DNA from: an uncultured Alphaproteobacteria bacterium
GTDB taxonomy: Bacteria; Pseudomonadota; Alphaproteobacteria; Sneathiellales; Sneathiellaceae
Assembly: GCA_913062525.1 (NCBI GenBank)
Contig: CAJXWA010000004.1
Span: 1-52,757, forward strand
Reading direction: 5' to 3'
DNA: 52,757 nt
The translations under genes and the position numbers were made by a program. The stretch's first letter is position 1; each line of letters opens with the position of its first letter. The notes below the pieces were generated by a model. That model ran no database searches, was not told the origin of the DNA, and saw nothing but the letters and a program-made list of their open reading frames with translations. Below are positions 973 to 52,274 of this stretch, piece after piece.

Positions 973-2508
973 ATGACAATAAAACAAAGTAGTTGGTTCT
1001 TTATTTGCTGGATCTTGCTGAGCGCCCTCATTGTTGCGTTGCTCACCCTTACTGAATTTTCCAAGCAAAAAGCAGAACTCATTGGCAAGGCGACTTCATT
1101 GCATCGGTTGGTGTCCCAGCGGGCGGATCAGCATGATGCCCATTTAACCGGTCTGTCTGCGTTAGCGTCTGCAAATGAAAAACCACTCACAGGGATGATG
1201 TTGAACTTGTCCGAAATGATACGGAAGTATTATTCCCGCATATCGCACATCGATTTGATTAAGTTGGACAAAACAAAACCCATTTCAATTTTCTCCACCC
1301 GCGCTACCCGCCAAGATAAAAAGCAGATCAATTTAATTCGGGACGCGGCATATGCGTCAACGGGACGCTTACAAATTATTCCATTACTGGATGGATATTC
1401 TCTTGTAAAACGGTCGCCAAATTCTAATAAAGTCCGGTATGGACTGGCGTTGTTTATTGACGGTCAGAAGCTTTTGGAAAATGACCTAGGATTTGGATCG
1501 CAAACGCAGCTGATCCTGAAAACACAACTTGGTGGCCTGATCTACGAAACACAAGCGCTTGATAAACAGGGCCTGTTAAGCCAAACGGTCCGATATAAAA
1601 GTACGTTGGGTAGTAGAAGTCAGCCTCTTTCCCTGGAAATTATACAGACTATTTCCGCGACAGATTACATTCGTTGGCAATTTATTTTGCCGTTCATTAT
1701 TTTATCTGCTGTTGGTATGGTTTTAACCAGATCATACTTTGATCAAAAGCAAAAAATCCGATTGGCGGAACACCGCGCATTACTAGGTGAACATGAAGCG
1801 CGTATTGCGCAAGCCTCTCGTATCAATGGTTTGGGAGAAATGGCATCTGGGCTCGCCCACGAGATCACACAACCTCTCACAGCTATCCTAAGCCAAAGCC
1901 AAGCCGGCGCGCATTTAGTGGGCGGAAATGCAGAGGAAACGGAGACCCTAAAACAAGTTCTGAAGAGTATCTCAAAGCAGGCAAAACGGGGCGGAGACAT
2001 TATTCAAAGGCTCAGATCTTGGACGACTCATTCTCAAGAAACCATTGAAATATTTGATTTAAATTCTGTTGCTAAAGGTATTCGGGATTTGATGAAGGCA
2101 GATTTAATAGATAGAGAAATTGTTATTGAAACGGCGCTATATTCGGGTAATTTGAAAATCGAAGCTGATCATGTGGCCATTGAACAAGTTGTCTTTAACC
2201 TGGCACGTAACGGTGTCGATGCTATGGAGGGTAAACCCTCTGGTCATCTCGTTCTCTCCACGGACAAAACGGATACTCATGCAATAATTTCTGTGTGTGA
2301 TAATGGCTCTGGGATCTCTGAGAAGGATTTTACGCAGCTTTACGATCCATTTTTTACCACGAAGGAAAATGGCATGGGACTTGGGCTCTCTTTATGTGAA
2401 AATATTGTAAATCGGTACAATGGACATATAGAAATTAAAAATAATCCCTCGGGCGGTGTCACATCTGTCGTAAGCCTACCCCTACTTGAAAATGAGCAGG
2501 GCTTATGA
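973..2508 (+). CDS. membrane sensor histidine kinase (FixL/DctB-type HisKA + HATPase)
   Basis: Two TM segments flank a ~230 aa extracytoplasmic region; H-box GLAHEITQPLTAIL; N box NLARNGVDAM; G boxes DNGSGI and GMGLGLS. Confidence 0.92.
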   Translation: MTIKQSSWFFICWILLSALIVALLTLTEFSKQKAELIGKATSLHRLVSQRADQHDAHLTGLSALASANEKPLTGMMLNLSEMIRKYYSRISHIDLIKLDKTKPISIFSTRATRQDKKQINLIRDAAYASTGRLQIIPLLDGYSLVKRSPNSNKVRYGLALFIDGQKLLENDLGFGSQTQLILKTQLGGLIYETQALDKQGLLSQTVRYKSTLGSRSQPLSLEIIQTISATDYIRWQFILPFIILSAVGMVLTRSYFDQKQKIRLAEHRALLGEHEARIAQASRINGLGEMASGLAHEITQPLTAILSQSQAGAHLVGGNAEETETLKQVLKSISKQAKRGGDIIQRLRSWTTHSQETIEIFDLNSVAKGIRDLMKADLIDREIVIETALYSGNLKIEADHVAIEQVVFNLARNGVDAMEGKPSGHLVLSTDKTDTHAIISVCDNGSGISEKDFTQLYDPFFTTKENGMGLGLSLCENIVNRYNGHIEIKNNPSGGVTSVVSLPLLENEQGL

Positions 2509-3107
2509 GCATTAAAGTCTATTTAGTCGACGATGATGAAGCCGTTCGAGCGGGGTTATGTCTGCTCCTGAAAACCATGAGTTACGATGTCGTGACTTAT
2601 GCAGATCCAACGATATTTTTAAGTGATGTGCGAAACTTGTCACCCGGTTGCATCATCATGGATATTCGAATGCCAATGATTTCTGGTCTAAAAGTTCAAG
2701 AGAAATTGGTTGAGGCCGACTGTTCCTACCCAGTTATTGTAATCAGTGGGCACGGGGATATTAATGCCTGCCGGAAAGCTTTTAAAAATGGTGCCATTGA
2801 TTTCATCAGCAAGCCGGTTGATGAGCAAGACTTGATCGATGCAATTCAAAAGGGCGAGGAAGTTCTTCGAAACATAACCCTAAAAGAAGACGAGATAAGT
2901 GAAGCCAAAACACTTGTTGCAAAACTCACTCCCCGAGAGATAGAAGTGCTTGAAATGATATCGAGAGGGTGGGCGACAAAAGAAATTGCGGCCGCACTTA
3001 CAGTATCGCCCCGCACTGTGGAAAGTCACCGGTCCCATATTTCTGAGAAAATTGGAACAACATCAGTTGCAGAGATGGCGCGGATCGCTATTGAAGCAGA
3101 GCTTTAG
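2505..3107 (+). CDS. FixJ/NarL-type response regulator (REC + LuxR HTH)
   Basis: VDDDEAVRAGL, MDIRMP phosphoacceptor region, LTPREIEVLEMISRGWATKEIAAALTVSPRTVESHR HTH; 4-bp overlap with the kinase gene. Confidence 0.93.
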   Translation: MSIKVYLVDDDEAVRAGLCLLLKTMSYDVVTYADPTIFLSDVRNLSPGCIIMDIRMPMISGLKVQEKLVEADCSYPVIVISGHGDINACRKAFKNGAIDFISKPVDEQDLIDAIQKGEEVLRNITLKEDEISEAKTLVAKLTPREIEVLEMISRGWATKEIAAALTVSPRTVESHRSHISEKIGTTSVAEMARIAIEAEL

Positions 3108-3127
3108 TATCCGTAGGACTACGGATA
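3108..3127. promoter_or_regulatory. perfect inverted repeat TATCCGTAG-GA-CTACGGATA, candidate response-regulator operator
   Basis: 9-bp arms with 2-bp spacer immediately after the RR stop; an additional CTACG half-site at 3141-3145. Confidence 0.5.
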
Positions 3128-3208
3128 GGACCTCGTTGCCCTACGAATTCCGGAACTCTTCCTAACATCATACCTTAATTCCAGAACACACACTTTGGAG
3201 TTAAAATT

Positions 3209-3712
3209 ATGAAAAACATTCGATCTACATTTTTAACAGTCGGTTTTGCAGCGTTTGGTTTAACATTGGCAACATCTGCTATGGCAGCGGAATTGCCAAC
3301 AGCACCTTACCTTCCTCTTGAAATGGCGCAAAAAGCGGCTAATGCCGCCATGCAACAATGTAAAGCGGATGGTTATAACGTCAGTGTCGCAATTGTCGCG
3401 CGTTCCGGCAGCACCAAAGTATTGATTAAAGCAGATGGTTCTGGCCCACACACTGAAGGAAGTGCAACAGGTAAGGCTTTCACATCTGCCAGCATGGGCC
3501 GCGCAACTTTAGGTTTGACGGGCTTTTTAAAAGATCATCGCGAACTTGACGGTTTGAGAGATATGGATGACCGTCTGGTAATCCTTGGCGGCGGCTTGCC
3601 TATCAAAATCAACGGTGCCCTTGTTGGAGGTATCGGTGTTGGCGGCGCACCGGGCGGTGATAAAGATGAGAAATGTGCAAAAGTTGGTTTGGCTGCAATC
3701 GGCGCTGAATAA
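3209..3712 (+). CDS. secreted GlcG/HbpS family (DUF336) heme-binding-like protein
   Basis: Sec signal peptide ending AMA-AE; DUF336-type core (LEMAQKAANAAMQQCKADGYNVSVAIVARSG ... LGGGLPIKINGALVGGIGVGGAPGGDKDEKCAKVGL). Confidence 0.88.
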   Translation: MKNIRSTFLTVGFAAFGLTLATSAMAAELPTAPYLPLEMAQKAANAAMQQCKADGYNVSVAIVARSGSTKVLIKADGSGPHTEGSATGKAFTSASMGRATLGLTGFLKDHRELDGLRDMDDRLVILGGGLPIKINGALVGGIGVGGAPGGDKDEKCAKVGLAAIGAE

Positions 3713-3758
3713 CCAACATCCAAGTTGAGGGTTTGAGTTTTGTTAATGGAAAATAGGT

Positions 3759-4439
3759 ATGAATAAAATCATTTCACTTTGCGCCATATTGTTTTGGTGC
3801 CTTTCAATTTCCAGTGTCAGTAAAGCTCAAACCCCGCCATCGGCAGATGAAAGGGCGCAGTATTCAGCTTTTCATAAAGCCGTCCTTGATGGTGACTTAT
3901 CGAAGGTAAGACAGCTCGTAGCGGATGGTGCAGATATTGAAGAACGTGACGATAGTGGCCGTACCGCCCTCCATATTGCGACTTTCTATTCTCATAAAAA
4001 AATGTTCAGCTTCCTAGTTAAAGCGGGTAGTGACGTAAACGCTTTTGAAGATGACCAGTATGACGTGGTTACCATTGCCGCAGTCGCTAATGATGTTGAA
4101 ATGCTCCAGCTAACTTTGGCGTCCGGCTGCAATCCTAAAAACACAACGAGCCTGTATAAAGGAACTGCGCTAATCGCGTCTGCCCATCTTGGTCATACCG
4201 AAGTCGTCGATGTGCTTTTAAAGGCGAATTCTAACGTGGATCATGTGAACAATTTGGGATGGACGGCATTATTAGAAGCTGTCATTTTGGGCGATGGCAG
4301 CCCAAAATATGTTAAAGTTGTGAAATCATTGTTAGCGTTTAAAGCAGATAAAAATATTGCCGACAATCAAGGGGTAACGCCGCTTGAACACGCCCGGCAA
4401 CGCGGCTACGAAGAGATCATTGAATTGTTGGAAAAGTAA
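3759..4439 (+). CDS. exported ankyrin-repeat protein
   Basis: Signal peptide (MNKIISLCAILFWCLSISSVSKAQ) followed by ankyrin repeats (DDSGRTALHIATFYSHKKMFSFLVKAGSDVNA; LGWTALLEAV). Confidence 0.88.
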   Translation: MNKIISLCAILFWCLSISSVSKAQTPPSADERAQYSAFHKAVLDGDLSKVRQLVADGADIEERDDSGRTALHIATFYSHKKMFSFLVKAGSDVNAFEDDQYDVVTIAAVANDVEMLQLTLASGCNPKNTTSLYKGTALIASAHLGHTEVVDVLLKANSNVDHVNNLGWTALLEAVILGDGSPKYVKVVKSLLAFKADKNIADNQGVTPLEHARQRGYEEIIELLEK

Positions 4440-4462: not shown

Positions 4463-5839
4463 TTATAGCAGACACCGGAGTTTCAAGATTGTTCTACGGA
4501 AGTTTGCCTCGATAGCATCTCTTGCTATATGCCTGCCATTTTGAACGTTATGCCGTCCAGCGGACCAGACGTCACTTATGAGTTGATCGTTTGATGCAAA
4601 TACCCAGGCGTCGATTAAGGTATCCCCATTAAGGCCGCAAAGATCTATCGATGACGTATCAAGGGCGATTATGTCTGCCCATGCACCAACTTCTATTGAG
4701 CCACTTTTACGGCCGCTTGCAGCAGCGCCGCCTTGGCAAATGGCGTCGAATAATACTCTGCCATTTGATTTTTCAGGCGAACATAATATGGCGCGTCCCT
4801 TTAGGGAGAGACGTTGAGAATATTCAAGGGCCCGGATTTCATGGACAAGACTAATTGACACGTTGGAGTCAGTGCCAACGCCCATAAGGCCGCCGTGATC
4901 CCTGTAGGAACGAGCGTCAAAAATACCATCGCCTAGGTTTGCTTCTGTAACGGGGCAGAGGCCGGCAACAGCACCGGATAACGCCATATCTAGCATTTCG
5001 GAATCTGTTAAATGTGTTGCATGTACGAGGCACCAGTTTTCTGCCACCTCAAAATTTCCCAACAACCATTCCACCGGGCGTTTGCCATATGCAGCATTGA
5101 TCTCCGAAATTTCTGCGAGTTGTTCGGCTATATGGATGTGAATAGGACCATTTTCATATGTTTGTGTAAGTGCCTGTAAATCAGATTTTGAAACAGCCCG
5201 GAGTGAGTGAGGCGCGATCCCCATGTGATTATCTTGGTGTTTGTTTTGGATGTTGCGGGCGGTGCCGTCCCACAATTTTGAGTATTGATCTAAGTTATTT
5301 TTAAACCGAAGCTGTCCTCCTTGAAGCTCCCGTCCATCGACACCGCCTTGCGCGTAATAAACAGGGAGCAATGTCAATCCAACGCCCGATGTCTCACTCG
5401 CAGTGATAACCCGGTCGCTGGTCTCTGACGGTGCATCATATGGGGTTCCATCGGCTTGATGATGAACATAATGAAACTCTACCACGCTTGCGTAACCGGC
5501 TTCTAACATTTCCATTTGAGCGAATGCAGTGATTGCTTCTAAATCCGTGGGTGTCAAATGTTCAAGAAATGAATACATCAGGGTTCGCCAGGTCCAAAAA
5601 CTATCCTGCCCTGATGCCCCGCGTGTTTCCGTAAGACCAGCTAAAGCCCGTTGGAACCCATGGCTGTGGAGGTTTGCAGGTGCGGGGAGGAGGGATTTTT
5701 CTGTCAAGATGACATCATCATCTAAAGGTATATGGTTTGGATCCACGCGTCTAATTTGTCCCGTGGTATTTATCTCAATACGCACATTTTGGGCCCAACC
5801 CGTTGGAAGAAGAGCATTTTCAGCGAACAAATTGGTCAT
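4463..5839 (-). CDS. hutF: formimidoylglutamate deiminase
   Basis: Amidohydrolase-type protein with NLHSHGFQRALAGLTE and GTDSNVSISLVHEIRALEYSQRL; divergent to hutG. Confidence 0.92.
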   Translation of the reverse strand: MTNLFAENALLPTGWAQNVRIEINTTGQIRRVDPNHIPLDDDVILTEKSLLPAPANLHSHGFQRALAGLTETRGASGQDSFWTWRTLMYSFLEHLTPTDLEAITAFAQMEMLEAGYASVVEFHYVHHQADGTPYDAPSETSDRVITASETSGVGLTLLPVYYAQGGVDGRELQGGQLRFKNNLDQYSKLWDGTARNIQNKHQDNHMGIAPHSLRAVSKSDLQALTQTYENGPIHIHIAEQLAEISEINAAYGKRPVEWLLGNFEVAENWCLVHATHLTDSEMLDMALSGAVAGLCPVTEANLGDGIFDARSYRDHGGLMGVGTDSNVSISLVHEIRALEYSQRLSLKGRAILCSPEKSNGRVLFDAICQGGAAASGRKSGSIEVGAWADIIALDTSSIDLCGLNGDTLIDAWVFASNDQLISDVWSAGRHNVQNGRHIARDAIEANFRRTILKLRCLL

Positions 5840-5860
5840 AGGGTTCCATTTTTCATTGAC

Positions 5861-5882
5861 TTATTATGTCTATACATAATAA
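5861..5882. promoter_or_regulatory. HutC-like operator TTATTATGT-CTAT-ACATAATAA
   Basis: Perfect 9-bp inverted repeat between divergent hutF and hutG; the same core occurs upstream of hutI at 52314-52333. Confidence 0.8.
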
Positions 5883-5940
5883 TCGCAAAATGGGTAAAAT
5901 CAACCAGCCATCACAATAATCTAAAATTAGGAACATACAC

Positions 5941-6738
5941 GTGTCCCCTGTTATTATAGAAGAGGGATCATCCCCGCTAATTCTCGCATTCCCTCATGGT
6001 GGAACAAATGTTCCTCCTGATATTTTTGAAAATTTGACTGAAAATGGTCGAAAGCTTGCTGATACCGATTGGCATATCCACCGGCTTTATGATGGATTGC
6101 TTGAAAATGTAACAACTGTGCAGGCCACCTTTCATCGGTATGTGGTTGATGCCAATAGGGATCCTGCAGGAGTAAGTTTGTATCCGGGGCAAAATACAAC
6201 AGGTCTTTGCCCAGAAACTGATTTTGACGGGCGACCGTTATGGAAAGCCGGATATAAACTGGACAAGGGAGAAATAGAGCGTCGTAGGGAATGCTTCCAC
6301 AGCCCTTATCATGCCGCTCTTGCTCATCAAATCCAACGTGTAAAAAAACAACATGGCATAGCGGTTTTATATGATTGCCACTCCATCAGATCAAAAATTC
6401 CATATTTGTTTGAAGATACATTGCCGGATTTCAATATAGGCACCAATGGCGGTACATCATGTAATTCCAAATTTGAACGAAGTGTCGTCGATGCCTGCAG
6501 CGCCGCGACAAAGTATAGCTCTGTTCTAAATGGGCGATTTAAAGGGGGCTGGACCACCCGACATTATTCAAATCCGACAGAAAATATTCATGCCATTCAA
6601 ATGGAGCTGGCTTTATCAACTTATGCCTCAGAAGAGCAACCTTGGACATATAATAGTGAAGGGGCCGAAAAAATCAGGAATGATCTGAGAAATATTCTTA
6701 AGAGACTAGAAACGTTGTCTTTAACGATCAGAAACTAG
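5941..6738 (+). CDS. hutG: N-formylglutamate amidohydrolase (GTG start)
   Basis: FPHGGTNVPPDIFE ... TDWHIHRLYDGL ... YDCHSIRSKIP; FGase family. Confidence 0.92.
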   Translation: MSPVIIEEGSSPLILAFPHGGTNVPPDIFENLTENGRKLADTDWHIHRLYDGLLENVTTVQATFHRYVVDANRDPAGVSLYPGQNTTGLCPETDFDGRPLWKAGYKLDKGEIERRRECFHSPYHAALAHQIQRVKKQHGIAVLYDCHSIRSKIPYLFEDTLPDFNIGTNGGTSCNSKFERSVVDACSAATKYSSVLNGRFKGGWTTRHYSNPTENIHAIQMELALSTYASEEQPWTYNSEGAEKIRNDLRNILKRLETLSLTIRN

Positions 6739-47828: not shown

Positions 47829-49496
47829 TTACAAAATTGCTGGCAAGTTTAACTCATGTTCACGGGCGCATTCTTTTGCAATGTCATACCCTGCATCAGC
47901 ATGCCTCATCACACCAGTAGCTGGATCATTCCAAAGCACTCTCTCAATTCGTTTTGCAGCTTCGTCGGTTCCATCGCAGCAGATAACCACGCCAGAATGC
48001 TGACTAAACCCCATTCCAACGCCGCCGCCGTGATGGATACTAACCCATGTTGCGCCAGATGCTGTGTTTAACAATGCGTTGAGCAGGGGCCAATCCGATA
48101 CAGCATCGGATCCGTCTTTCATGGATTCTGTTTCTCTATTTGGGGATGCCACAGACCCAGAATCAAGATGATCACGACCGATAACCACAGGTGCGCTCAA
48201 TTCACCTGTTTTGACCATTTCATTAAAGGCCAACCCCAAACGGTGACGATCCCCAAGGCCTACCCAGCATATTCTCGCTGGGAGTCCTTGGAACTCGATA
48301 CGCTCGCTCGCCAAATCCAACCAGTTATGAAGATGTTCATTGTCAGGGATCAACTCACGAACCTTTGCATCGGTTTTTCGAATATCTTCCGGATCTCCAG
48401 ATAGCGCTGCCCATCGAAAGGGTCCGATACCTCTACAAAATAACGGACGGATATAGGCGGGCACGAACCCTGGAAAACTGAACGCAGTCTCCAGTCCTTC
48501 TTCAAATGCCATTTGGCGAATGTTATTTCCATAATCCACTGTGGGGATGCCCGCTTCAGAAAAGGCGACCATAGCCTCGACCTGAACTCTCATAGAGGCT
48601 CTAGCGGCTTTTTCAACGCCTTTGGGATCGTTTTGTTGGCCGTCTAACCACTGGGCCATTGACCAATTTTGCGGAAGATACCCATTTATCGGATCATGGG
48701 CAGATGTCTGATCTGTCACCATATCGGGCCGAACACCCCGTTTGACTAATTCTGGGAATATATCTGCCGCGTTTCCAACTAAACCAACTGACTTTGCCTC
48801 TCCAGCTGCTGTCCATTTGTCGATCATGGCAAGGGCTTCATCTAGTGTATCAGCCTTTTCATCCACATAACGGGTGCGTTTCCTGAAATCAATTTTCTCT
48901 TCGTTACATTCAACAGCTAGGCAGCATGCCCCCGCCATTACAGCGGCCAATGGTTGCGCGCCGCCCATGCCGCCAAGGCCACCGGTTAATATCCATTTGC
49001 CTTTCATGCTACCGCCATAATGTTGGCGTCCGGCTTCAACGAAGGTCTCGTAGGTGCCTTGGACAATGCCTTGGCTCCCAATATAGATCCACGATCCGGC
49101 TGTCATTTGCCCGTACATCATCAAACCCGCTTTATCGAGCTTGTTAAAGTGATCCCAGTTCGCCCAGTTGGGAACTAAATTTGAGTTGGCGATTAAAACA
49201 CGGGGGGCATCTTCATGTGTTTTAAACACACCGACGGCTTTTCCAGATTGAACCAGCAGAGTTTCATCACTTTCAAGCGCCTTCAACTGCTCCGTAATGA
49301 TATCGAAATCTTTCCAAGTTCGAGCAGCCCGACCAATACCGCCATAGACAACGAGCTCATTGGGGTTTTCTGCCACATCAGGATCCAGATTATTCATCAG
49401 CATTCGCAAGGGGGCTTCGGTAAGCCAAGATTTTGCATTTAATTTTGGGCCGCGCGGGGAACGAACTTCACGAATGTTATGACGAGGATTAGTCAT
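47829..49496 (-). CDS. hutU: urocanate hydratase
   Basis: [60 protein letters not shown]; start MTNPRHN at 49496. Confidence 0.97.
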
Positions 49497-49519
49497 TCTT
49501 TTCTCCAATGAATAAGTCT

Positions 49520-51061
49520 TTAAGCATCGATTTTTATGTGAGGAAGGGACGCGTACCCAACTGCAGCGCAGAACTCACCAGTTTTGAGCAATTCTGCCGC
49601 TTTCTCCAAGTCAGGAGATAGATACCTGTCCTCCGCCACTGCTGTGATATCTTGACGAATACGGGCAATACATTTTTCAAGTTTAGGGCTCGTTTTATGA
49701 GGTCCCCGAAACTCAATTCCCTGAGCCGCGCACAATCCTTCAATGCCGAGTATCCGTTCAAGGTTGGCAGTCATTATCAACAATCGCCTTGCCGCGTGAC
49801 AGGCCATGGAAACGTGATCCTCCTGATTGGCCGATGTGGGAGTGGAATCCACAGATGCGGGATGTGCCATTTGTTTGTTTTCTGACATCAATGCCGCAGA
49901 AGTTACTTCAGCAATCATCAGGCCAGAATTCAGCCCAGGATTTGGAGATAAAAAGGCGGGAAGTCCGAAACTCAGTGCAGGATCAACCAACAGCGAGATC
50001 CTTCGTTGGGATATTGATCCAATTTCTGCTACTGCAAGCGCAATTTGATCAGCAGCAAAAGCGACAGGTTCAGCATGAAAATTACCGCCAGAGACAATGG
50101 ATCCATCTGATAGAGTTAAGGGATTATCGGTGACGGCGTTTGCTTCAATTTCCAACGTTTTGGCAGTTTGGCGCAATAAATCAATGACGGCCCCCATAAC
50201 TTGGGGCTGACATCGGATGCAGTACGGGTCTTGGACGCGGGTATCACCTTCACGGTGCGTTTCCCGAATTTCAGACCCCGCCATAAGGGCGCGAAGCGTA
50301 TAACCCGCATCAATTTGACCTTGATGGCCACGAAGCAAATGAATCTCGGGATGAAACGGCGCTCCGGATCCCATCGCGGCATCTGTGGAAAGGGCGCCAG
50401 TTATTAAGGCCGATTGTGCGCAGTTCCAAGCCTTGAACAAGCCAATCAATGCAAGCGCAGTAGAGGCTTGCGTCCCATTTATAAGAGCTAAGCCTTCTTT
50501 TGGTCCCAGAATAAGCGGCTTAATTTCGGCTCTTTGAAGCGCTTCATTGCCACTCATGTGAACGCCATCAAGATATGCCTCGCCTTCACCGATCATTACT
50601 GCGGCCATATGGGCAAGTGGTGCAAGATCACCGGATGCACCGACAGATCCTTGCGCCGGTATAAATGGAATGACGTTCTTTTCCGCCATAACCTCTAACT
50701 GCTCAATAACTTGCCAACGGACACCGGAGGCACCACGGCCCAGTGACAAAAGTTTAAGCGCCATTATTAGGCGGACGATATTCTCATCCAGTGGATCACC
50801 AACACCACTGCAATGAGACAGAATAAGATTTCTTTGAAGAGTTTCAGTGTCTTCTGAGGGTATCTTAATGCTGGCAAGTTTACCAAAACCGGTGTTTACA
50901 CCATAGACGGCTTCACCACCATTTGCTGCGGCGAGGATCAATGCAGCGCTTTTCTCAACAGCCGGTTTGACTGATCTCTCGATTTTAACAGGCGTGCAAG
51001 TTTGGGCAATTTTTCGTAAGTCGGCTAAGGACGCATTCCCGGGGGTTAGGGTAAGTGTCAT
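49520..51061 (-). CDS. hutH: histidine ammonia-lyase
   Basis: MIO motif [26 protein letters not shown]; start MTLTLTPG at 51061, overlapping the hutI 3' end region. Confidence 0.97.
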
Positions 51062-51062
51062 T

Positions 51063-52274
51063 TCAATCTCCGCGAATTGATTGGTAAAGCGGGTTGAAAC
51101 CCACACGATACGATAGTTCAGACGGGTGTTCTACGTTCCAAATGGCAAGCTCTGCCAATTTACCAACTTCGAGAACACCAATTTCGTTTTGAAGGCCAAG
51201 GGCTTGGGCGGCATTACGTGTCGTCCCAGTAAGAGCCTCTTCTGGTGTCAGTTTAAATAATGTACATCCCATGTTCATGGTCAGTAGAAGCGATGTCAGG
51301 GGGGATGAACCCGGATTACAGTCAGTTGCAAGTGCCATGGGCACGCCTGCGCTCCGAAGGGTATCAATGGGCGGAAGCCTACTTTCCCGAAGCGTGTAGA
51401 AGGCACCGGGCAGGATTACAGCAACGCTGCCCGATTGTTTTAAAGCCTGCACGCCGTCTTCATCCAAATATTCAAGATGATCTGCTGATAGAGCACCGTA
51501 GGATGCGGCAAGGGCAGCCCCTCCCAGATTTGAGAGTTGTTCTGAATGAATTTTAACGGGCAATGATAGCTCAGCTGCTTTGTCAAAAACCCGTTTAACT
51601 TCGCCTGGAGAAAATGCAATCCCCTCGCAGAAGGCGTCTACCGCATCTATGAGATTTTCAGCAGCACCAAGATCCATAGCAGGCAGGCAAACTTCCAACA
51701 GATACTCATTATTACGGCCAGCATATTCTGGCGGTAATGCATGAGCCCCGAGGAAGGTTGTTTTAATTCGAACGGACCGCAGCTTTTCAAGCTGACGGGC
51801 AGCGCGCAGCATTTTTAACTCATCAGCAATTGTTAAGCCATATCCCGATTTAATTTCGATCGTTGCCACGCCTTCGCTAAGCAATGCGTCAAGGCGGGGC
51901 AATGCATCTTGCACCAATTCACTTTCAGACATCTCTCGAGTGTTGCGGACGGTTGACATAATACCGCCGCCACTTCGTGAGATTTCCTCGTAACTTGCGC
52001 CTTTTAACCTAAGTTCAAATTCCCGTGCCCGATTGCCACCGTAGACAAGATGTGTGTGGCAATCAATTAGGGCGGGGGTCGTCAAACGGCCTTGCAGATC
52101 AATGCGTTCCCAACGATCGTCACTGTAAGTCGCGGGTAAATCTCTGGCAGCACCTATCCACTGGATTTTGCCGTCAGAGATGACAATTGTCCCGTTCTCT
52201 ATCAAACCATAGTCGTCAGAAATAGCCGGAGATAGTGTTGCTAAAGTCGTATTTATATAAATCTTCTCGGTCAA
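51063..52274 (-). CDS. hutI: imidazolonepropionase
   Basis: [77 protein letters not shown]. Confidence 0.97.

What the first reader, a model, noticed from the sequence alone, without database searches (positions are those of the whole stretch)
973..4439. Candidate HbpS-SenS-SenR-like system: two-component pair + secreted DUF336 protein + periplasmic ankyrin protein
Seen: a membrane kinase with a ~230 aa extracytoplasmic domain overlaps a FixJ/NarL-type regulator by 4 bp. About 100 bp later comes a signal-peptide-bearing DUF336 (GlcG/HbpS) protein, then an exported ankyrin protein, all co-directional with no obvious terminator. Known: in Streptomyces the extracellular heme-binding DUF336 protein HbpS modulates the SenS/SenR two-component system and affects oxidative-stress genes; a periplasmic ankyrin protein (AnkB) supports catalase KatB in Pseudomonas. 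Inference: this could be a Gram-negative heme/redox sensing module with an accessory sensor in the periplasm.
Basis: partly seen in the sequence, partly recalled or inferred. Interest (0 to 1): 0.62.

Follow-up and report, generated by a model that had tools for sequence, protein, structure and literature searches.

The report
Portable kinase–regulator–DUF336–ankyrin signalling module
A sensor kinase and its partner regulator are almost always inherited together with an exported small-molecule-binding (DUF336) protein, often with an exported ankyrin protein too, and the regulator appears to switch on only that one promoter; the set moves between distant bacteria as a unit and seems not to have been described.

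Summary
In 61 of 62 loci from Alpha- and Betaproteobacteria and one Deinococcus plasmid (60 chosen by the kinase sensor alone), the DUF336 gene directly follows the response regulator; ankyrin adjoins in about half. Flanking genes differ and several copies lie on plasmids.

The RR–DUF336 gap holds a conserved operator (7-2-7 inverted repeat, third half-site) with a −10 'TA' exactly 22 nt downstream in 17 of 17 close loci. It occurs once per genome in 16 of 16 searches, orphan DUF336–ankyrin cassettes keep it, and it changes where the regulator's recognition helix changes. DUF336–ankyrin is most likely this two-component system's dedicated output.

It is not a member of HbpS-SenS-SenR: the kinase is HisKA/dCache-type, not HisKA_3; export is Sec-like, not Tat; the studied heme and iron residues of HbpS are absent. 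It resembles that system in gene layout. Whether DUF336 feeds back on the kinase, and what it binds, is untested. No description was found in the library searched. New variant of a known kind.

The parts
973..2508 (+). membrane histidine kinase, 511 aa: TM1, ~205-aa periplasmic dCache-like sensor, TM2, HisKA, HATPase_c
   Evidence: Pfam HisKA 1.1e-8, HATPase_c 1.4e-20; AlphaFold pLDDT 90 for residues 1-265; Foldseek to dCache sensors KinD, CqsR, PctC
1060..1680 (+). periplasmic sensor domain of the kinase (no Pfam family)
1117..1149 (+). signature QRADQHDAHLT just after TM1; Q, R, A, D, Q, H invariant in 20 aligned sensors
2505..3107 (+). FixJ/NarL-type response regulator, 200 aa, overlaps kinase gene by 4 bp
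   Evidence: Response_reg 3e-26, GerE 4.9e-18
3108..3127 (.). operator: inverted repeat TATCCGTAG-GA-CTACGGATA (core TCCGTAG-NN-CTACGGA, 7-2-7)
   Evidence: conserved in relatives
3141..3148 (+). third operator half-site CTACGAAT, 22 bp downstream of CTACGGA, overlapping the expected -35 position
   Evidence: pattern unique in the genome
3171..3176 (+). -10 element TACCTT; TA exactly 22 nt after CTACGAAT in 17 of 17 close loci
   Evidence: 0 of 2000 shuffles reach it
3209..3712 (+). exported DUF336 (GlcG/HbpS-like) protein, 167 aa; signal peptide about 3209-3286
   Evidence: PF03928 E=4.8e-30; nearest solved structure HbpS 3fpv, E=2.6e-34; Cys51, His81, Lys89, Asp153, Cys156 invariant in 32 module copies
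3759..4439 (+). exported ankyrin-repeat protein, 226 aa; signal peptide about 3759-3827
   Evidence: Ank_2 E=8.7e-29; neighbour in about half of the loci

Best explanation
A self-contained, horizontally mobile signalling module. A dCache-type membrane kinase detects a signal in the periplasm and phosphorylates its partner FixJ/NarL-type regulator. The regulator binds a private operator (a 7-2-7 inverted repeat plus a third half-site at the -35 position) and activates one promoter, which makes an exported DUF336 protein and, in about half of the copies, an exported ankyrin protein. These are the dedicated output: DUF336 most likely captures or converts a small harmful or informative periplasmic molecule, with ankyrin as its scaffold. 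By removing that molecule, or by touching the kinase, DUF336 most likely closes a feedback loop. Supported by sequence evidence: gene linkage, operator, promoter geometry, uniqueness of the target, regulator-operator covariation. Inferred: activation rather than repression, ligand binding, scaffold role of ankyrin, feedback. Unknown: the ligand.
For: Linkage: 61 of 62 loci have DUF336 directly after the regulator, among them a Deinococcus plasmid in the same order. Kinase, regulator and DUF336 trees all recover group I of 17 loci as one side of a branch. Of 24 congeners only the two that hold the kinase hold the close DUF336. Operator: exactly one match in each of 16 genome searches, always in the module, none in the reversed control. 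In 385 alphaproteobacterial genomes all 4 kinase carriers have it, and the 9 other matches lack the -10 spacing (P = 8e-7). TA at offset 22 in 17 of 17. Three orphan DUF336-ankyrin cassettes keep operator and -10. Recognition helix of the SxRT..(S/T)HR type goes with CTACSGA in 46 of 49 loci and never with CTACCTA; S(V/A)RTIDAHR goes with CTACCTA in 9 of 11.
Against: No expression or binding data. The DAHR regulators may be one lineage, so the covariation may be a single event. One kinase-regulator locus (G727) has no DUF336, so the kinase can exist without it. Ankyrin is absent next to about half of the copies. Weaker operators elsewhere in the genome would be missed by an exact pattern.
Confidence: 0.68

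Rival explanations
1. Three-component sensing as in HbpS-SenS-SenR: the DUF336 protein is the primary ligand or redox sensor and directly gates the kinase's dCache domain; its own induction is secondary. (Partly compatible with the best explanation.)
For: Near-absolute linkage of kinase and DUF336; matching trees; a heavily conserved juxtamembrane helix QRADQHDAH in the kinase that could be a contact site; HbpS gates SenS (PMC3754957); a Vibrio plasmid shows a DUF336 gene divergent from an unrelated OmpR-type pair.
Against: DUF336 has its own regulator-controlled promoter, which is what an output gene looks like; orphan DUF336-ankyrin cassettes exist without an adjacent kinase; HbpS residues needed for SenS contact (Ser26, His28) are not conserved.
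Confidence: 0.4
2. Heme- or iron-stress module: the kinase responds to periplasmic heme or iron, and DUF336 binds or degrades heme.
For: Fold family and annotation as heme-binding; HbpS and PduO bind heme (PMC4923194); AnkB supports a catalase in Pseudomonas (cited in PMC2830190).
Against: HbpS Thr113, Lys108, Glu78/Glu81 and His28 positions are not conserved; no flanking gene family recurs in the neighbourhoods apart from generic transporters and regulators.
Confidence: 0.2
3. Reactive-carbonyl or other small-molecule module: DUF336 uses the conserved Lys-Asp pocket that binds formaldehyde in EfgA.
For: Lys89 and Asp153 are invariant in 32 module copies, with the same 64-residue spacing as EfgA Lys57-Asp121 (PMC8153426).
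Against: This Lys-Asp pair is general to the DUF336 family (PMC3754957), so it is not specific evidence; by spacing the EfgA Ser114 position is a glycine here.
Confidence: 0.2
4. Passive neighbours: the four genes are only together by descent, without a functional link.
For: None beyond proximity.
Against: Conserved across orders, classes and one other phylum while flanks change completely.
Confidence: 0.02

Closest known systems
HbpS-SenS-SenR (Streptomyces)
   Same: exported DUF336 protein encoded beside a kinase and a GerE-type regulator; regulator predicted to act on the DUF336 gene
   Different: kinase is HisKA plus dCache, not HisKA_3; Sec-like not Tat signal; HbpS heme and iron residues absent; DUF336 gene lies downstream with its own operator; ankyrin partner; no visible catalase target
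FixL-FixJ / TtrS-TtrR type two-component systems
   Same: HisKA kinase with a FixJ-type regulator
   Different: regulator scores 176 bits against a FixJ cut-off of 255; no PAS-heme or PhnD sensor found in the window kinase
dCache sensors such as KinD, CqsR, PctC
   Same: predicted fold of the sensor domain
   Different: no sequence family assigned; different signature residues
EfgA (cytoplasmic formaldehyde sensor, DUF336)
   Same: DUF336 fold and conserved Lys-Asp pocket spacing
   Different: EfgA is cytoplasmic, acts on translation and has no conserved genomic context
AnkB (Pseudomonas aeruginosa periplasmic ankyrin)
   Same: small exported ankyrin-repeat protein
   Different: AnkB is paired with catalase KatB; here paired with DUF336

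Membership tests
HbpS-SenS-SenR | exported DUF336 protein encoded beside a two-component pair | tested here: met
HbpS-SenS-SenR | SenS-type kinase (HisKA_3) | tested here: not met
   HisKA_3 in the kinase beside the S. chartreusis HbpS homologue; HisKA in the window kinase
HbpS-SenS-SenR | Tat export of the DUF336 protein (PMC3754957) | tested here: not met
   no twin-arginine motif in MKNIRSTFLTVGFAAFGLTLATSAMA
HbpS-SenS-SenR | Ser26/His28 contact, Glu78xxGlu81 iron site, Lys108, Thr113 | tested here: not met
   equivalents are Ala32/Tyr34, Gly84/Thr87, Arg117, Arg122 in the window and vary among 32 copies
HbpS-SenS-SenR | regulator controls the DUF336 gene | tested here: inconclusive
   strong operator and promoter evidence, no experiment
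HbpS-SenS-SenR | regulator controls catalase or oxidative-stress genes | tested here: inconclusive
   operator found once per genome, at the module only, but with an exact pattern
HbpS-SenS-SenR | DUF336 protein modulates kinase autophosphorylation; heme binding | not testable with these tools
   needs purified proteins
DUF336 / HbpS-like (PF03928) | profile match above curated cut-off | tested here: met
   104.7 bits, cut-off 25
FixJ equivalog (NF006900) | score above 255 bits | tested here: not met
   175.9 bits
dCache sensor domain | dCache fold | tested here: met
   predicted structure only; Foldseek TM about 0.7 by target length to KinD; no Pfam match
AnkB-KatB | exported ankyrin protein beside a catalase gene | tested here: not met
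   exported ankyrin present, no catalase adjacent

The most novel reading that the evidence does not exclude
A widespread, horizontally mobile three-component system of Gram-negative bacteria and Deinococcus, convergent with HbpS-SenS-SenR but built on an unrelated dCache kinase, in which the exported DUF336 protein is both the sole regulated product and the ligand-binding partner that gates the kinase, with a periplasmic ankyrin protein as scaffold.
Probability: 0.38. Interest if true: 0.72.

Novelty: new variant of a known kind. Interest (0 to 1): 0.52.

Why it matters
DUF336 proteins are widespread, but few have a known role. In 2016 only actinobacterial hbpS-like genes were reported clustered with a two-component system (PMC4991794). 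This module shows the pairing also arose with a different kinase type and spread through Proteobacteria and to Deinococcus plasmids. It supplies a defined operator, a single predicted target promoter and many natural variants, so the question of what exported DUF336 proteins bind and do can be tested directly by reporter screening in harmless soil and marine bacteria.

Tried and rejected
PDB sequence search with the sensor profile: only chance hits; Pfam: nothing convincing. Literature: no paper in the held library combines DUF336 with two-component and ankyrin; the 2026 heme-Cache paper concerns DUF3365, a prefix match, and its CXXCH motif is absent here. A wider regulon with 2 mismatches gave no more hits than the reversed control. 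A single clade of module DUF336 proteins against others is neither shown nor rejected (p-AU 0.27; two outgroup rows, L011 and L032, were read on the wrong strand and add noise). Conserved flanking genes: none recurrent apart from generic transporters and regulators. Reading the palindrome after the regulator as an intrinsic terminator: rejected, since no T-run follows and a conserved half-site and -10 lie downstream. DUF336 elsewhere in G727: no match, which by itself shows little. Kinase in trans for the orphan cassettes could not be tested, as only their plasmid records were held.

Full report
What is there. Window 973-4439 holds four co-directional genes: a membrane histidine kinase, a FixJ/NarL-type regulator overlapping it by 4 bp, an exported DUF336 protein and an exported ankyrin-repeat protein. 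Upstream is glmS; downstream, on the other strand, hutF. The genome holds three further DUF336 genes on other contigs.

Conservation near and far. Among 24 congeners, two carry the kinase, and the same two carry the close DUF336 relative (82-86% identity), as kinase-regulator-DUF336-ankyrin but with different flanks. A scan of GTDB genomes with the kinase sensor alone found loci in Martelella, Nitratireductor, Sedimentimonas, Aliiruegeria, Kaistia, Microvirga and Roseomonas; all 16 intact ones have DUF336 immediately after the regulator, and the seventeenth (L092) is a fragment. A phylum-wide sample added members outside the class, five of the six examined with DUF336. They are taken as Betaproteobacteria because Variovorax, which groups with them, is one. 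A 279-genome sample of one alphaproteobacterial family that includes Ensifer- and Martelella-related genomes gave 31 loci that were fetched, all with DUF336. Annotated plasmids show the same order in Variovorax, Maritalea, Pseudosulfitobacter, Defluviimonas, Martelella (ankyrin upstream), Paracoccus and Gemmobacter (no ankyrin), and in Deinococcus, a different phylum. After removing two duplicates the counted set is 62 loci, 61 with DUF336; ankyrin adjoins in about half. Sixty of the 62 were chosen by the kinase alone; two plasmid records (L174, L176) were reached through the ankyrin protein. The DUF336 count is therefore not a selection effect. Trees of kinase, regulator and DUF336 each recover the same group I of 17 loci.

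Sensor domain. It has no Pfam family. AlphaFold with 20 homologues gives pLDDT 90, and Foldseek places it with dCache sensors such as KinD, CqsR and PctC. Just after TM1 it has the signature SQRADQHDAHLT, nearly invariant in the aligned set and looser in some of the more distant kinases. Deinococcus and G727 kinases carry an additional PAS domain.

Operator and promoter. Directly after the regulator's stop codon, and in most relatives including that stop codon, lies an inverted repeat TCCGTAG-NN-CTACGGA, followed 21-22 bp later by CTACGAAT. In 17 close loci a TA stands exactly 22 nt after CTACGAAT, 11 of them as TANNNT; none of 2000 shuffles matched this. That is the geometry of an activator overlapping the -35 position. 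The pattern TACSGA-N13..16-CTACGAAT occurs once in each of 16 module-bearing genomes (one genome appears under two handles), always in the module. In 385 alphaproteobacterial genomes it is found in all 4 kinase carriers; the 9 other matches lack the repeat and the -10 spacing. Plasmid cassettes with only DUF336 and ankyrin (Agrobacterium F2, Roseateles XES5, Shinella) keep the operator and -10, and a Deinococcus cassette keeps a diverged form. Loci whose regulator recognition helix reads S(V/A)RTIDAHR have CTACCTA-type half-sites (9 of 11), against 0 of 49 loci with other helices, of which 46 have CTACSGA. Together this is strong evidence that the regulator's conserved target is the DUF336-ankyrin promoter.

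The DUF336 protein. Its nearest solved relative is HbpS (E=2.6e-34). Two cysteines (51, 156), His81, Lys89 and Asp153 are invariant in 32 copies. HbpS has neither cysteine at the aligned positions. [quoted passage not shown] The cysteine pair could be a structural disulfide or a redox switch; this is inference, and some other exported DUF336 proteins also have it (sequences).

How it most likely works. Signal, dCache kinase, regulator, one promoter, exported DUF336 and ankyrin. The step from regulator to promoter rests on sequence evidence. That DUF336 then binds a small molecule follows from its family. That it feeds back on the kinase is inference from the tight linkage and the HbpS precedent.

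Known or new. It resembles HbpS-SenS-SenR in layout but fails the kinase-type, export and key-residue tests. Busche et al. 2016 state that only actinobacterial hbpS-like genes cluster with a two-component system, and I found no later report in the library; most subscription papers are not held. I rate it a new variant of a known kind.

Noticed in passing
window 4463-6738 and 47829-52274: Histidine-utilisation genes are split: hutF and hutG directly after the module, hutU-, hutH- and hutI-like genes at the far end of the window about 41 kb away.
   Followed up: no
L172 7753-9120 and L077 11514-12827: A chromate efflux gene (chrA) lies directly downstream of the module in two different alphaproteobacteria.
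   Followed up: partly
L200 1784-4498 (Vibrio tubiashii plasmid p251): Another DUF336 gene stands divergently beside an unrelated OmpR-type two-component pair, a possible further independent DUF336-two-component pairing.
   Followed up: partly
L191 3456-4679, L193 3441-4675, L194 3441-4666, L199 3836-5010: Orphan DUF336-ankyrin cassettes without adjacent kinase or regulator; three keep the full operator and -10, the Deinococcus one a diverged form.
   Followed up: partly
L152 8570-11300 (G727): Kinase-regulator pair of the same type with operator-like sequence after the regulator but no DUF336 or ankyrin gene found.
   Followed up: partly
L078 6721-7883 and L192 1-1146: In Martelella the ankyrin gene sits upstream of the kinase together with a nucleoside/cytidine deaminase gene.
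   Followed up: no
L174 841-2718 and L152 8570-10579: Kinases of this type in Deinococcus and G727 carry an extra PAS domain between sensor and HisKA.
   Followed up: no
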